55,131 bases of DNA from Arcticibacter svalbardensis MN12-7 (GTDB lineage: Bacteria > Bacteroidota > Bacteroidia > Sphingobacteriales > Sphingobacteriaceae). This document shows, piece after piece, positions 38,740 to 43,333 of this stretch; positions within the stretch are counted from its first letter, which is position 1, and every line of letters begins with the position of its first letter. The notes under the pieces are model-generated. The model had not been told where the DNA came from. It made no database searches and saw only the letters and a program-made list of their open reading frames with translations. The position numbers were made by a program, and so were the translations under genes. Location: NCBI RefSeq assembly GCF_000403135.1, contig NZ_AQPN01000051.1:1-55131 (forward strand). The letters are read 5' to 3'.

Positions 38740-39275
38740 TCATTTTATTGGATCCGTAGGCCTGTTCAGTTGTTTTTTTATCCACTCAAGTGATTCCTGG
38801 TTAGTCTCTTCAAAGCGCCAGTGTCCGGAAATAGGGGTAATAGAAATTGTTTTACCTGCTTTAATGGAGTTAACTGCAGAAAATACAGATGTAGGGGGAC
38901 ATGTATTGTCATTATACCCCCAAGAATAAAATCCAGGTACAGTGATCTGTTTGGCAAAGTTGACTACGTCGTAATAGCCGATGGTTTTCAACTTTAATTT
39001 ATTCCGTGTGCAATCGCCAAAAGCTATGCTGATGTTTCGGAAATTTTCGGTATCAAGGAGAGGAGAGATGCCATGTATTCGATGCTCAGACTAATATAAC
39101 CCTGTTCTTCTTATAAGCTGGTAGCATTTCAGGTCCTGTTTCATAGCTGATAAAAACATTATCCACTGGGACACCAAACTTTAAAATGCTGACATGTATG
39201 GAGGCATTTTTATTCACCTTGTATTCCAGTCCTTTGCATAAGGTGTGAGTACAAACTCAATTAATTTGATTGGAG
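38740..39275 (-). pseudogene. internally deleted and frameshifted acetylxylan esterase
   Basis: On the minus strand the N-terminal part reads LTPYAKDWN, shifts frame, and continues YKVNKNASIHVSILKFGVPV to about 39095. The frame then jumps to the C-terminal third, IHGISPLLDTENFRN, then KTIGYYDVVNFAKQITVPGF and the catalytic-His region SGHWRFEETNQESLEW, ending at 38740. About 240 central residues (with the nucleophile Ser) are missing relative to AXE1/cephalosporin-C deacetylase-type enzymes of about 430 residues. It cannot be functional. Confidence 0.8.
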
Positions 39276-39538: not shown

Positions 39539-40036
39539 TTAAAAACTTTGATCGTCAGCACTTGGGCCATACGAACCTGGGATTGGAATATCCAGTAAAC
39601 GGAGATATACGCCCAGCTGAGCACGGTGATGAATAGTTTGACTTAGCGCGATACGAATTAATCCTCCCTTTGTAAGATTACCTAAAATCTGATCTCCATT
39701 TCTTAAGATCCATTCAGGTGTCAGGTCTTCATCCTTGGCATTTTCTAGTTTGGCTTTAGCCTCTGCAAAAGAATGTTCAAAGAGATCAAGTAGTTCTTCA
39801 TTGTTATTCCATGTTGCAGGTGAATAAGGCACTACTGCAAAGTCAAGTTCATCTGTATCAAAGGCCAAAGGTATCCAGTTGGTTAGATCAGCAATATGTG
39901 ATGACAGCTGCTTGATAGTCATGCTCTTTACATGTGGTTGCCATTCATATTTATCCTCAGGAATAATTTTCAGCATCTTACAGGTAGTCTCTGATTCCTG
40001 TTTAAGTTCTTCTAAAAAATTTGTTACTGTTGACAT
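39539..40036 (-). CDS. DinB family protein
   Basis: Starting at the ATG at 40036 (MSTVTNFLEEL) the protein has 165 residues. An upstream in-frame TTG overlaps the likely promoter and is rejected. It is a four-helix bundle of the DinB/YfiT-like superfamily with three metal-ligand histidines suggested by LSSHIADLTNW and SQTIHHRAQLGVYLRLL. Many members act as thiol-dependent transferases, but specific substrates are unknown. It follows the YafY regulator gene on the same strand (60 bases), and the two are a frequent pair. Confidence 0.88.
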   Translation of the reverse strand: MSTVTNFLEELKQESETTCKMLKIIPEDKYEWQPHVKSMTIKQLSSHIADLTNWIPLAFDTDELDFAVVPYSPATWNNNEELLDLFEHSFAEAKAKLENAKDEDLTPEWILRNGDQILGNLTKGGLIRIALSQTIHHRAQLGVYLRLLDIPIPGSYGPSADDQSF

Positions 40037-40055
40037 CTTGTTTCTGATTAAGTAA

Positions 40056-40063
40056 CAAAGAAA
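40056..40063 (-). promoter_or_regulatory. -7-like promoter element (TTTCTTTG) of dinB-like gene
   Basis: TTTCTTTG matches TAnnTTTG except for one base and lies 19 bases before the ATG at 40036. No clear -33 was confirmed. It supports the shorter DinB start. Confidence 0.4.
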
Positions 40064-40096
40064 CAATAGTCCTGTGACAGCCCTATGTCAGCAGTG

Positions 40097-41050
40097 CTAA
40101 ATAAAATTAATATTTTTTTTAATGGTATTAAACAATAGCTGTACTTTTTTCTTAATGGAATCGGGCTGAAGGATAATGGCGCAATCTGCGATAGACATAT
40201 ACCAGCGTGAAAATCCTTCTGGAGATAAAGTCAGGAATTTCATTTCTATGCCTTTAGCAGTTTGCTTTTCTGATACATAGCCCTGGTAATATTTCTGCTC
40301 ACCCAAATGAAGTGAAGCCTCCTGATCAACAAGAAGGGTGATTTCTACGACTGAGAATGCTTTATACTGATCAATCAGGTAGTTCTCCAGACTGATATGA
40401 ACGTCCTGATAACATTCGTTTGTTGTTTCGATTTTTATGATGCGATCAAAGCGGAAATCTCTGCATGCTTTCCTTTCACGGCAATAAGCAATCAGGTGCC
40501 AGTAATTATCAAGGTAAAGTATACCAATAGGCTCCACTAAACGTGATGATTGTTGCTGCCGGTAGTAGGAATAATATGTCATCTGCATCACCTTCTTGTC
40601 AGCAATCGCCTGCAAAATAATTTGAAGTGGATTCGGATGTTCCTTGAATTCTGGATGCCGCTTGCTTTTAATTACTTTTATCCTTTCATCCAGATCTTCT
40701 AAATAATCTTTGTCTGTCCGTTTAAGAACTGCCCTGATCTTATCCATTGCAAGGCTGTAAGATTTACTGTTTTCCTGATCGGTTAAAGACAGTACCAGTT
40801 TTTCTGCCGTAATGAAAGCTGTTGCCTCTTCGCGGGTAAACATAAGAGGAGGGAGGCGATAACCATCAGCCAGTGAATAACCTCTTCCGGCTTCACCTAT
40901 AATGGGTACTCCGGCTTCTTCGAGTGAACGGATATCACGGTAAACGGTGCGTAAACTAATTTCGTAACGGTTGGCAACATCCTGCGCCCTGGTGTTTTTG
41001 CGCGATTGTAACTGAATAAGAATTGCGGATAGGCGGTCGATCCTGTTCAT
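40097..41050 (-). CDS. YafY-family transcriptional regulator (HTH plus WYL domain)
   Basis: This 317-residue regulator has an N-terminal HTH_11 (about 5-60: RAQDVANRYEISLRTVYRDIRSLEE) and a WYL domain (about 140-310) with IGILYLDNYWHLIAYCRERKACRDFRFDRI, which binds nucleic acids or nucleotides. WYL regulators respond to DNA damage or single-stranded nucleic acids and often sit in defence loci. It is four bases downstream of the cREC gene and 60 upstream of the DinB gene, so the three form a probable operon. Confidence 0.93.
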   Translation of the reverse strand: MNRIDRLSAILIQLQSRKNTRAQDVANRYEISLRTVYRDIRSLEEAGVPIIGEAGRGYSLADGYRLPPLMFTREEATAFITAEKLVLSLTDQENSKSYSLAMDKIRAVLKRTDKDYLEDLDERIKVIKSKRHPEFKEHPNPLQIILQAIADKKVMQMTYYSYYRQQQSSRLVEPIGILYLDNYWHLIAYCRERKACRDFRFDRIIKIETTNECYQDVHISLENYLIDQYKAFSVVEITLLVDQEASLHLGEQKYYQGYVSEKQTAKGIEMKFLTLSPEGFSRWYMSIADCAIILQPDSIKKKVQLLFNTIKKNINFI

Positions 41051-41054
41051 TGAT

Positions 41055-41396
41055 TTACTCCTCGCTCGTTAAGAATTTTTGATAATTGTTCAGCAATGAT
41101 TCAATCTGCAATTTTGCTACTGGATTGGCTGAATGTACATAGAATTGTAAGTCTTTAAGATCGAATTCACGATCGTATACCAACCATTTAGCACAAGCAT
41201 AACCATCAGGAAGCAGGGACTGTGATTCATCTTCGCCAAGATCATTGTCAAAACTAATGAACTCTGGAAGTCCGTTTTCTGAAATATAAGCTACAAAATC
41301 GGTATAGCTTCTGACAATTATAAAATCAGCATCAGTGAGGTTTTTATAAACCATATTTACAGTTCGCAGGTCGTCAAGAAAAAGCTTATATCCCAT
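41055..41396 (-). CDS. cyclic-phosphate-processing receiver (cREC) domain protein
   Basis: A 113-residue single domain with the cREC hallmarks: LFLDDLRTVN at the N-terminus and FISFDNDLGEDESQS with the conserved acidic residues (Asp71 and Asp73 region). The family is predicted from comparative work to process 2',3'-cyclic phosphates and occurs in RNA repair and defence contexts. Stand-alone form, not fused. It is the first gene of the probable operon with the WYL regulator and DinB. Confidence 0.82.
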   Translation of the reverse strand: MGYKLFLDDLRTVNMVYKNLTDADFIIVRSYTDFVAYISENGLPEFISFDNDLGEDESQSLLPDGYACAKWLVYDREFDLKDLQFYVHSANPVAKLQIESLLNNYQKFLTSEE

Positions 41397-41535
41397 GTTC
41401 AGTAAGTATCGTGGTAATTTTGTTTATTTCAAATCATTAAAATTTTATTTAAAACTTTTTTAACCTTTTTTTAAATATGCAGATACCCTGCATATCACGA
41501 CGTCATCTTTGTCGTGAATTAAAAATTAAAAAAGA

Positions 41536-41703
41536 ATGAAGAAAGTTATAATAACCTTTTTAACCGTTACATTATTTGTACTTATCTGCGTATTAGTTGA
41601 TAAATCAACTAGCATTAAAAACCCATCGTATTATTATTTTTTCGCAATGCTGCTCCTTTATTCAGTAGGGGTGTTGGTAGCCAGAGATATAAATAAAGAG
41701 TGA
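41536..41703 (+). CDS. 55-residue membrane protein
   Basis: An ATG at 41536 gives MKKVIITFLTVTLFVLICVL, a short polar loop, then FFAMLLLYSVGVLVA and an end with RDINKE. It therefore has two hydrophobic segments of about 17 residues each with an extracytoplasmic turn. The start is preceded by AAAAAAG-like spacing (weak). No family is recognised. It sits between the divergent cREC operon and the WYL-exonuclease operon, and would be missed with usual length cutoffs. Confidence 0.6.
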   Translation: MKKVIITFLTVTLFVLICVLVDKSTSIKNPSYYYFFAMLLLYSVGVLVARDINKE

Positions 41704-41782
41704 TGAAGATCATTCTAAATGTTTTCCTGTGAACTTCCAGTAATGATATATTTACAGGACTTAATCGCCTAACATTTAGACC

Positions 41783-42817
41783 ATGCCTATAACCCTTGAT
41801 GCCTTATTACGATACCATTCTATTGATACTTGTTTGCAAGATTATGCTCTTGGTTGCACCCTTGATTTCCTTGCAGAAAGATGTACGCAAGATTTAATTG
41901 AGAAAGGAGAAAATCCCCATAGGGATACCGTAAGTAAGCGTACTATTCAAAATGATATCAAAAATTTGCGAGGTGATAAATTAGGCTATAATGCGCCTAT
42001 TGTGGTTAAGGATGGAAAGTATTCTTATTCTGAGAAGACCTATAGTATTGGTAATGTTTCGCTGACAAATAATGATATTATAAACATTTCAGCTGCTGTG
42101 AAAATGCTGAAATCATATAAAGGTGCTGTGTTTTTTTCGGGTATAGAATCTTTGGTAGACCGGCTGGAACGAAATGCTAATTTGAATTTGTATGGGAAGG
42201 TTCAATCTATTGTGGCTTTCGAGCACTTTCCAGAAAGTTCAGGAACTGACATGATTAAGCCACTTATGGATGCCATTACTAAGAAAGAGGTGATTAATGT
42301 TACTTATTTGCGCTTCGGTTTGGATCAGACAGCAAAAAATCAACCTTTTCACCCTTATCTGCTTAAAGAATACCATAACCGCTGGTATGTGCTGGGAATG
42401 AATAATCAATATAAGGAGATTCAAACCTTTGCACTAGACAGAATTAAGAAGTTTGAGGTTTTAACTGATATTCAGTATGATACACAGCATAAGCCCGATC
42501 CCGATGTATATTTTAAAGATACCATTGGAGTTACTATTTTCCATAATGCTAAACCTGTAGAAATTAAATTACGCTTTAATCAATCAAAGCTTCCGTATAT
42601 CAAAAGTCAGCCGCTACATGAAAGTCAGTGGGTGATAGAAGAAACCGAGGAATATATTACTATTGGACTTAGACTAACGTTAAACTTTGAATTGCAATCG
42701 TTAATTATGAGCTTTGCAGATGAAGTAGAGGTGCTTCAACCGGCTTCATTGAGGTCTTTAATAAAGAAAAGGATTAATAAAGCAAGTGATTCTTTTAATA
42801 AGGAGAGGCCTATTTAA
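41783..42817 (+). CDS. WYL domain regulator (second copy)
   Basis: This 344-residue protein has an N-terminal winged-helix-like region (about 1-80: DTVSKRTIQNDIKNLRGDKLGYNAPI) and a WYL domain in the C-terminal half (LKEYHNRWYVLGMNNQYKEIQTFALDRIKKFEV near 195-228). It differs from the YafY-like copy at 40097 and resembles stand-alone WYL regulators of Bacteroidota. The exonuclease gene starts nine bases downstream on the same strand, which makes a probable two-gene operon. Confidence 0.9.
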   Translation: MPITLDALLRYHSIDTCLQDYALGCTLDFLAERCTQDLIEKGENPHRDTVSKRTIQNDIKNLRGDKLGYNAPIVVKDGKYSYSEKTYSIGNVSLTNNDIINISAAVKMLKSYKGAVFFSGIESLVDRLERNANLNLYGKVQSIVAFEHFPESSGTDMIKPLMDAITKKEVINVTYLRFGLDQTAKNQPFHPYLLKEYHNRWYVLGMNNQYKEIQTFALDRIKKFEVLTDIQYDTQHKPDPDVYFKDTIGVTIFHNAKPVEIKLRFNQSKLPYIKSQPLHESQWVIEETEEYITIGLRLTLNFELQSLIMSFADEVEVLQPASLRSLIKKRINKASDSFNKERPI

Positions 42818-42826
42818 TATAATATA

Positions 42827-43333
42827 ATGAATTCAATCAATACTTTTACTGCAATAGATTTCGAAACTGCTCAGGGAAAAAGGAATAGCATTTGTCAGGT
42901 TGGCCTGGTTAGGGTAGAGCAAGGGATTATTACCAGGAAGATTGTGCTGTTGGTGAAACCTCCTGATAATTTTTACGCTCCAATCAATATTCAGATTCAT
43001 GGAATTACTCCTGATATGACTCGTAATTCGCCTTCTTTTGAGTGGATATGGCCTTCCATCATGGGTTACATCCGCAATCAAAATATTGTGGCACATAATA
43101 GTTCATTTGACGTAAGCTGTTTACAGCAAACTCTAGCGTATTACCGGATAGCTGTTCCCGATTTTAAAGCGCATTGCACATACAAGATTTATGGACAAAA
43201 GTTAAATTTGGTATGTAGTAAATATGGAATAAAATTGCAGCATCATGATGCTTTATCTGATGCATTGGCATGTGCTGAATTATTTCTGATTCATAATAAG
43301 AAGAATAATATTTCTTCTGGAATTTCAATATAA
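42827..43333 (+). CDS. DEDDh 3'-5' exonuclease
   Basis: This 168-residue RNase T/DnaQ-like protein has motif I AIDFETA (Asp11, Glu13), motif II AHNSSFDVSCL (Asp near 93), and motif III HHDALSDALACAELF with the conserved His and Asp. Stand-alone members remove 3' ends of DNA or RNA. It follows the WYL regulator in a two-gene unit and faces the cREC operon, a context that suggests nucleic-acid repair or defence. The exact substrate is unknown. Confidence 0.9.
   Translation: MNSINTFTAIDFETAQGKRNSICQVGLVRVEQGIITRKIVLLVKPPDNFYAPINIQIHGITPDMTRNSPSFEWIWPSIMGYIRNQNIVAHNSSFDVSCLQQTLAYYRIAVPDFKAHCTYKIYGQKLNLVCSKYGIKLQHHDALSDALACAELFLIHNKKNNISSGISI

What the first reader, a model, noticed from the sequence alone, without database searches (positions are those of the whole stretch)
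39539..43333. Divergent cREC-WYL-DinB and WYL-DEDDh exonuclease operons around a 55-residue membrane protein
Two different WYL regulators face each other across a small membrane protein, one with a predicted cyclic-phosphate-processing protein and DinB, the other with a 3'-5' exonuclease. WYL domains sense single-stranded nucleic acids or nucleotides, and cREC is predicted to act on RNA ends. This could be a nucleic-acid damage or phage response locus that has not been described as a unit.
Basis: partly seen in the sequence, partly recalled or inferred. Interest (0 to 1): 0.6.

Follow-up and report, generated by a model that had tools for sequence, protein, structure and literature searches.

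The report
Two-armed WYL-controlled nucleic-acid stress locus
Two back-to-back groups of bacterial genes for handling nucleic acids appear to share one DNA switch, of the kind that relatives use next to an RNA-repair gene, so they probably work as one damage-response unit.

Summary
The genes are as described: DinB-superfamily protein, WYL1, cREC (minus strand); 55-aa membrane protein, WYL2, DEDDh exonuclease (plus strand). The arms diverge, and "DinB" is the metal-binding four-helix family, not Pol IV. The six-gene set recurs in Arcticibacter eurypsychrophilus; four other same-genus genomes searched have no cREC.

The main new result is a perfect 19-bp palindrome, TATGCAG-N5-CTGCATA, in the divergent promoter (41476-41494). 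Exact matches: one in the window's genome, two in the sister genome, where an insertion splits the arms and each arm keeps a copy. The same architecture (YGCA-N7-TGCR) lies upstream of 18 of 23 WYL2-clade regulators, 12 of these 18 beside an rtcB RNA-ligase gene or fragment. It is therefore probably the WYL2 operator, and one regulator probably controls both arms.

Elsewhere in Bacteroidota, cREC recurs with another WYL subfamily and this exonuclease, once inside a GmrSD restriction island. Most cREC loci have neither neighbour.

Best reading: a WYL2-switched nucleic-acid-damage response, plausibly acting on RNA ends, with a SiwR-like WYL1-DinB branch. Co-regulation is supported by comparison only; chemistry, inducer and sign of control are inferred. 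Verdict: new variant of a known kind.

The parts
39539..40066 (-). DinB/YfiT-superfamily protein (PF05163/PF12867), third gene of the minus-strand arm; ATG start probably about 40036
   Evidence: 53 and 40 bits; 91% identical copy in G001, dN/dS 0.107
40097..41050 (-). WYL1: HTH_11 + WYL regulator, starts 4 bp after cREC
   Evidence: 92% identical copy in G001; keeps the FRxDR arginine seen in PafBC, PafC and DriD
41055..41396 (-). cREC (cyclic-phosphate processing Receiver domain), first gene of the minus-strand arm
   Evidence: PF20274 86 bits; receiver fold in the model; D50 invariant, D8 and D9 nearly so in 49 sequences
41476..41494 (.). 19-bp palindrome TATGCAGATACCCTGCATA, proposed WYL2 operator shared by both arms
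   Evidence: exact pattern once in G000, twice in G001; arms kept in three copies; same architecture in 18 of 23 WYL2-clade promoters
41536..41703 (+). 55-aa membrane protein, first gene of the plus-strand arm, role unknown
   Evidence: 76% identical in G001, dN/dS 0.157; no family match
41783..42817 (+). WYL2: WYL + WCX regulator of the clade that includes rtcB-linked WYL proteins
   Evidence: Foldseek matches to DriD, PafBC, CapW, BrxR, on a weak model
42827..43333 (+). DEDDh 3'-5' exonuclease, starts 9 bp after WYL2; putative catalytic residues D11, E13, D95, H140, D145 (motif assignment recalled)
   Evidence: RNase_T 71.6 bits; motif positions; solved relatives PolC, DnaQ, ExoX, Cas2-DEDDh

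Best explanation
The locus is one divergent stress regulon. A WYL2 dimer binds the 19-bp palindrome between cREC and the 55-aa gene and sets the expression of both arms (inferred from comparative genomics; whether it represses or activates is open). WYL2 changes state when its WYL domain binds a nucleic-acid ligand, as characterised WYL regulators do (inferred). The products handle damaged nucleic-acid ends: cREC is predicted to open cyclic phosphates and the DEDDh enzyme to trim 3' ends (inferred from family). The minus-strand arm also makes WYL1 and a DinB-superfamily enzyme, a second-tier branch of the SiwR type (inferred). The 55-aa membrane protein has no assigned role. RNA ends are the likelier target because WYL2's clade includes the rtcB-linked regulators and because cREC has repeated links to a calcineurin-like phosphoesterase.
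For: Six-gene set kept in a second species under purifying selection. Exact palindrome once in G000 and twice in G001, one copy per arm around an insertion, both 7-bp arms unchanged in three diverged copies. Same 19-bp architecture upstream of 18 of 23 WYL2-clade genes against 21 of 289 other genes in the same loci; 12 of the 18 lie within 2.5 kb of rtcB, one of these a fragment. It is absent from the 300-aa cREC-linked WYL clade, 0 of 8 distinct loci, and from 4 of 4 WYL1 homologues without cREC. cREC + WYL + this exonuclease recurs in L052, L143 and L154 with a different WYL clade; 4 of 75 cREC loci have the exonuclease within 5 kb, about 0.045 expected. A related phosphoesterase lies near cREC in 4 bacterial and 21 of 80 viral loci.
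Against: The full set is known from two genomes of one genus. Of 75 cREC loci, 71 lack the exonuclease and 66 lack a WYL gene within 5 kb. The 62%-identical WYL2 of G005 (L033) stands without cREC and shows no palindrome; four other clade members lack it too. The motif class was defined on the same promoters in which it was counted. In G001 the two palindromes derive from a duplicated intergenic stretch, so their retention is not fully independent. The exonuclease's solved relatives are mainly DNA enzymes. cREC activity is unproven in print (PMC9503650, passages). No expression data.
Confidence: 0.48

Rival explanations
1. A DNA-damage (single-stranded DNA) response of the SiwR/DriD/PafBC type: WYL1 and/or WYL2 sense ssDNA and switch on DinB, a DNA-trimming exonuclease and accessory genes.
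For: WYL1-DinB pairing matches SiwR with DinB_2 genes, where ssDNA is bound and a 19-bp imperfect palindrome lies in the promoter (PMC10693628, passages). WYL1 keeps the arginine of FRxDR seen in PafBC, PafC and DriD. The exonuclease matches PolC, DnaQ and ExoX. WYL2's closest folds are DriD and PafBC.
Against: The palindrome belongs to the WYL2 clade, which has A or G instead of that arginine. WYL2's relatives sit by rtcB. cREC is predicted for cyclic phosphates, which DNA breaks do not give.
Confidence: 0.25
2. An anti-phage defence locus: WYL regulators keep nuclease and end-processing effectors low and release them on infection.
For: cREC, WYL and this exonuclease occur with GmrSD restriction genes in L154; L148 and L088 have GmrSD, cREC and WYL, without the exonuclease. 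WYL regulators CapW and BrxR control CBASS and BREX (PMC9122588 abstract; PMC9122601 passages).
Against: The window has no restriction, CBASS or BREX gene beside the set, and PADLOC names no system in the six proteins. cREC itself is widespread in phages (328 relatives in the viral scan), which fits a counter-defence or repair enzyme equally well.
Confidence: 0.12
3. Two unrelated units lie back to back: WYL1-DinB (with cREC) and WYL2-exonuclease, sharing only a promoter region.
For: WYL1, WYL2 and the exonuclease occur without the other parts elsewhere in the genus and family. cREC has very variable neighbours. Only two genomes hold the full set.
Against: The set survives an insertion between the arms, with the palindrome kept on both sides. 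cREC + WYL + exonuclease recurs elsewhere with another WYL clade.
Confidence: 0.15

Closest known systems
SiwR and the msmeg_1357-1356 DinB-superfamily operon (Mycobacterium smegmatis; PMC10693628, passages)
   Same: WYL regulator beside DinB_2-type genes; 19-bp palindrome in the promoter; response to nucleic-acid damage
   Different: No cREC, no second WYL and no exonuclease in the passages read; SiwR genes diverge from the dinB-like genes, here WYL1 and DinB are in one arm; the palindrome here lies upstream of cREC and is assigned to WYL2
cREC-containing NAD/ADP-ribose and RNA-repair neighbourhoods (PMC7824862, PMC9503650, passages)
   Same: cREC linked to WYL regulators and to RNA-end enzymes; predicted to act on 2',3'-cyclic ends or cyclic ADP-ribose derivatives
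   Different: Those are mostly phage neighbourhoods with RNA ligase, sirtuin, Nudix or 2H genes; here a chromosomal two-arm locus with DEDDh and DinB
rtcB loci with a WYL regulator in Bacteroidota (seen)
   Same: Same WYL clade and same palindrome architecture
   Different: No RtcB found in the window's genome or in G001
CapW (CBASS) and BrxR (BREX) regulators (PMC9122588 abstract; PMC9122601 passages)
   Same: WYL homodimer expected on a palindrome in its own promoter
   Different: No CBASS or BREX genes beside the set

Membership tests
WYL transcription regulators | WYL domain | tested here: met
   PF13280 68 bits (WYL1) and 46 bits (WYL2)
WYL transcription regulators | N-terminal DNA-binding HTH | tested here: inconclusive
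   WYL1: HTH_11 54.5 bits, met. WYL2: no Pfam HTH hit; helix pattern in a weak model (pLDDT 63.7) whose Foldseek matches are full-length WYL regulators
WYL transcription regulators | WCX domain C-terminal to WYL | tested here: inconclusive
   WYL2: WCX 40 bits, met; WYL1: no WCX hit at E <= 0.01
cREC_REC (PF20274) | Profile match over the curated cut-off | tested here: met
   86 bits against 27
cREC_REC (PF20274) | Receiver fold with conserved aspartates | tested here: met
   pLDDT 94.9; Z 9.7, 2.7 A over 91 residues to 1dz3; Foldseek best E 2e-3, also a receiver; D8, D9, D50 conserved
cREC_REC (PF20274) | Opens cyclic phosphates | not testable with these tools
   Published prediction only (PMC7824862, PMC9503650, passages)
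DEDDh exonucleases | RNase_T domain with D-E-D-H-D residues | tested here: met
   71.6 bits; D11, E13, D95, H140, D145 at motif positions (assignment recalled)
DEDDh exonucleases | RNA or DNA preference | not testable with these tools
   Sequence relatives with structures are mainly DNA polymerase exonucleases
SiwR-DinB type locus | WYL regulator beside DinB-superfamily gene | tested here: met
   Window, G001 and G007
SiwR-DinB type locus | Palindrome bound by that regulator upstream of the dinB-like gene | tested here: inconclusive
   The palindrome found is upstream of cREC and is assigned to WYL2; no operator was found for WYL1
RtcB RNA-repair locus | rtcB gene | tested here: not met
   No PF01139 match in G000 or G001 (G000)
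CapW/BrxR-controlled defence systems | CBASS or BREX genes beside the WYL gene | tested here: not met
   None among the six proteins by PADLOC; flanking genes scanned by Pfam are CHAD, alcohol dehydrogenase, DUF805 and DUF2752

The most novel reading that the evidence does not exclude
Bacteroidota use one WYL operator code (YGCA-N7-TGCR) for RNA-end damage. At many loci the code sits by rtcB; in an rtcB-less branch of Arcticibacter a WYL2 paralogue controls a cREC + DEDDh module and a DinB branch instead. The locus would then be an RtcB-free response to broken RNA, with a separately assembled counterpart (cREC with the 300-aa WYL clade) in islands that can carry restriction genes.
Probability: 0.27. 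Interest if true: 0.72.

Novelty: new variant of a known kind. Interest (0 to 1): 0.52.

Why it matters
The ligands of most WYL regulators are unknown and cREC is described as experimentally uncharacterised (PMC9503650, 2022, passages). This locus offers a compact test: a defined candidate operator, one candidate regulator, and a predicted end-processing enzyme and exonuclease in one switchable unit. The YGCA-N7-TGCR palindrome, if confirmed, would let WYL regulons, including those at rtcB, be read from Bacteroidota genomes.

Tried and rejected
Rejected: that cREC replaces RtcB in general. RtcB is in 34 of 49 cREC genomes searched against 84 of 395 class genomes over the cut-off. Within cREC genomes, those linked to the 300-aa WYL lack RtcB in 7 of 8 (L052/G066, L143/G030, L088, L091, L097, L148 and L155 lack it; L154 has it) against 10 of 43 others (Fisher p about 0.001). 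Phylogeny and completeness were not controlled, window and G001 were left out, and the L155 WYL lies about 4.6 kb from cREC, so this is only a hint.

Rejected: the second inverted repeat TCACGAC...GTCGTGA (41495-41517) as a conserved operator; neither G001 copy keeps it. Rejected: the palindrome as a WYL1 operator, since 4 of 4 WYL1 homologues without cREC lack it. The LKE..NRW..(A/G)LDR signature is shared by WYL2, rtcB-linked and cREC-linked WYLs, but these are related to each other and it may be general in Bacteroidota, so it is not used as evidence for the ligand.

Led nowhere: genome-contig scan with WYL2 (no relatives); PHROGs for the 55-aa protein and orphan neighbours (none); PDB sequence search for cREC (nothing credible); BLAST for EXO or WYL near viral cREC genes (none in 80 loci). 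The degenerate pattern with up to 2 mismatches gave 27 places in G000 and 29 in G001 against 7 and 5 for the reversed control; I did not study the other places, so a wider regulon is open.

Dropped before counts: 5 of 93 cREC loci had no callable cREC ORF, leaving 88 there and 75 of 80. Six viral loci with phosphoesterase hits of only 31-35 bits were left out of the 21 of 80. The exonuclease density of 0.27 per genome is 16 of 60 genomes above 80 bits, while one search used BLAST bits against several reference exonucleases, so the expected 0.045 is approximate; one of the 4 loci (L082) is the sister genome. L037 and L038 are near-identical; the starts of L034, L047 and L122 are probably called too far upstream. 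The top rank of YGCA-N7 holds after merging the first core base into Y/R; unmerged, CGCA-N7 (13 loci) still ranks first, ahead of an A/T-run core (11). Control genes may share an intergenic region with a WYL gene.
Full report
WHAT IS THERE. The six genes are placed as stated. On the minus strand, reading outward: cREC (41396-41055), WYL1 (41050-40097, 4 bp after cREC) and a DinB/YfiT-superfamily protein. On the plus strand: a 55-aa membrane protein (41536-41703), WYL2 (41783-42817) and a DEDDh exonuclease (42827-43333, 9 bp after WYL2). The arms diverge from a 139-bp intergenic region.

CONSERVATION OF THE SET. In G001 all six genes recur: exonuclease-WYL2-55aa on one side, cREC-WYL1-DinB on the other. 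Between them lies an insertion with an MCRA-family gene (651 bits; oleate hydratase by recall) and a 153-aa orphan. All six pairs show purifying selection (dN/dS 0.07-0.16), including the 55-aa gene. The flanking genes differ. The other same-genus genomes searched, G002-G005, have no cREC match but carry WYL1 homologues; the three of these WYL1 loci that I read (G002, G003, G005) show no cREC or DinB match beside WYL1. cREC matched 5 of 60 relatives, the window's genome included.

THE SHARED OPERATOR. The intergenic region holds a perfect 19-bp palindrome, TATGCAGATACCCTGCATA, at 41476-41494. With no mismatch, TATGCAGN5CTGCATA occurs at one place in G000 and two in G001. The G001 places lie upstream of the 55aa-WYL2-exonuclease arm and upstream of the cREC-WYL1-DinB arm, on either side of the insertion. 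The intergenic stretch is duplicated there; its flanks have diverged, but both 7-bp arms are unchanged in all three copies. An enumeration of inverted repeats in 23 WYL2-clade promoters, over all cores and spacers of 1-13, ranked YGCA-N7-TGCR first, in 18 of 23, against 21 of 289 other genes in the same loci. Over 1.87 Mb of loci, some overlapping, there are 65 such sites with up to one mismatch. In 13 of the 18 loci the site is 41-61 bp upstream of the called WYL start; in the window and G001 it is about 300 bp upstream, ahead of the 55-aa gene. Twelve of the 18 lie within 2.5 kb of rtcB, L037 only beside a fragment (Pfam confirmed for L042, L039, L041). The architecture is absent from the 300-aa cREC-linked WYLs, 0 of 8 distinct loci, and from 4 of 4 WYL1 homologues without cREC. 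I therefore assign the palindrome to WYL2. The tree puts window, G001 and G005 WYL2 in one group (99/99) within a 23-row clade (98/97) that holds the rtcB-linked ones. Against the assignment: 5 of 23 members lack the site, among them G005, the closest without cREC.

RECURRENCE OF THE PARTS. Of 75 cREC loci with a callable cREC gene from the genome-contig scan (80 of 173 relatives kept), 4 have this exonuclease within 5 kb (L082, L140, L143, L154) and 9 have a WYL gene, one of them (L122) an rtcB-type WYL. About 0.045 exonucleases were expected. L052 (G066), from another family, adds a case. In L052, L143 and L154 the order is exonuclease, cREC, WYL, with other genes between. L154 reads exonuclease, GmrSD, GmrSD, cREC, AAA ATPase, calcineurin-like phosphoesterase, WYL; L148 has the same order without the exonuclease (AAA and phosphoesterase by Pfam; its GmrSD pair by similarity to that of L088 and L154); L088 has WYL-cREC followed by two GmrSD genes. 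The WYL of these islands is a clade apart from WYL2, so cREC has met a WYL and this exonuclease at least twice. A separate link, cREC followed by a DinB_2-like gene, occurs in 7 of 88 mapped loci, 5 of them Chryseobacterium. A related phosphoesterase lies near cREC in 21 of 80 viral loci, many near-identical, and in 4 bacterial loci. Against this, most cREC loci have none of these partners.

STRUCTURE. The cREC model (pLDDT 94.9) is a receiver fold (Z 9.7 to 1dz3, 91 residues, 2.7 A; Foldseek's best E is only 2e-3). D50 is invariant and D8 and D9 nearly so over 49 sequences. The WYL2 model is weak (pLDDT 63.7); its best Foldseek matches are DriD, PafBC, CapW and BrxR. The exonuclease's solved relatives are PolC, DnaQ, ExoX and Cas2-DEDDh.

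MECHANISM. Shown by comparison: the set is kept in two species and the palindrome is kept on both arms. Inferred: WYL2 binds it, both arms respond, and the ligand is a nucleic acid. SiwR (PMC10693628, passages) is the precedent for WYL1-DinB; CapW (PMC9122588, abstract and outline) and BrxR (PMC9122601, passages) for WYL proteins on inverted repeats. The cREC activity is a published prediction (PMC7824862, PMC9503650, passages). No RtcB was found in G000 or G001, which leaves open that this locus does a related job; the general test speaks against cREC replacing RtcB.

NOVELTY. Searches for WYL with RtcB (11 papers), cREC with WYL, GmrSD or PF20274 (18 papers, 12 listed), WYL with exonuclease or cREC (158 papers, 20 listed), and searches listed no paper that, by title or start of abstract, describes this set or this operator. 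PMC4012209 (passages) links RtcB to the CARF regulator RtcR, not to WYL. Most subscription papers are not held, so absence from print is not shown. The parts are known; the two-arm arrangement and the WYL2 operator appear new. I file it as a new variant of WYL-controlled nucleic-acid stress loci.

Noticed in passing
L154 2414-10463; L148 3105-10462; L088 6015-13741: Recurrent islands with two GmrSD-family restriction genes, cREC, a calcineurin-like phosphoesterase and a 300-aa WYL regulator, plus an AAA ATPase in L154 and L148 and the DEDDh exonuclease in L154.
   Followed up: partly
L054, L142, L149, L157-L160: cREC followed by a DinB_2-like gene, with an RNaseH_like (PF04308) gene nearby upstream; mostly Chryseobacterium.
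   Followed up: partly
L032 7963-10845: In G001 an MCRA-family gene and a 153-aa orphan sit between the arms, flanked by two diverged copies of the intergenic region; the cREC-side copy includes a remnant of the 55-aa gene's start.
   Followed up: partly
L117 6529-7011 and L032 10143-10604: The 153-aa orphan has a 33%-identical relative directly before cREC in Leptobacterium flavescens; no Pfam or PHROG match.
   Followed up: partly
Viral loci L182, L183, L199, L201, L212-L215, L219, L224-L226, L228-L231, L233, L235-L237, L239: A calcineurin-like phosphoesterase related to that of the bacterial islands lies near phage cREC genes, in 21 of 80 viral loci (Pfam for L213).
   Followed up: partly
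window 38740-38991: An 83-aa ORF matches only the C-terminal end of acetyl xylan esterase AXE1 (47 bits), so it looks like a gene remnant beside the DinB gene.
   Followed up: partly
L087, L090, L092, L093 and 15 more loci: In 19 loci, those I checked by title being Flavobacterium, a 575-aa gene (Peptidase_M14 match in L092) precedes cREC on the same strand.
   Followed up: no
L097: A contig labelled as a Bifidobacterium breve MAG carries a Bacteroidota-like cREC-WYL pair, so it may be mis-binned.
   Followed up: no
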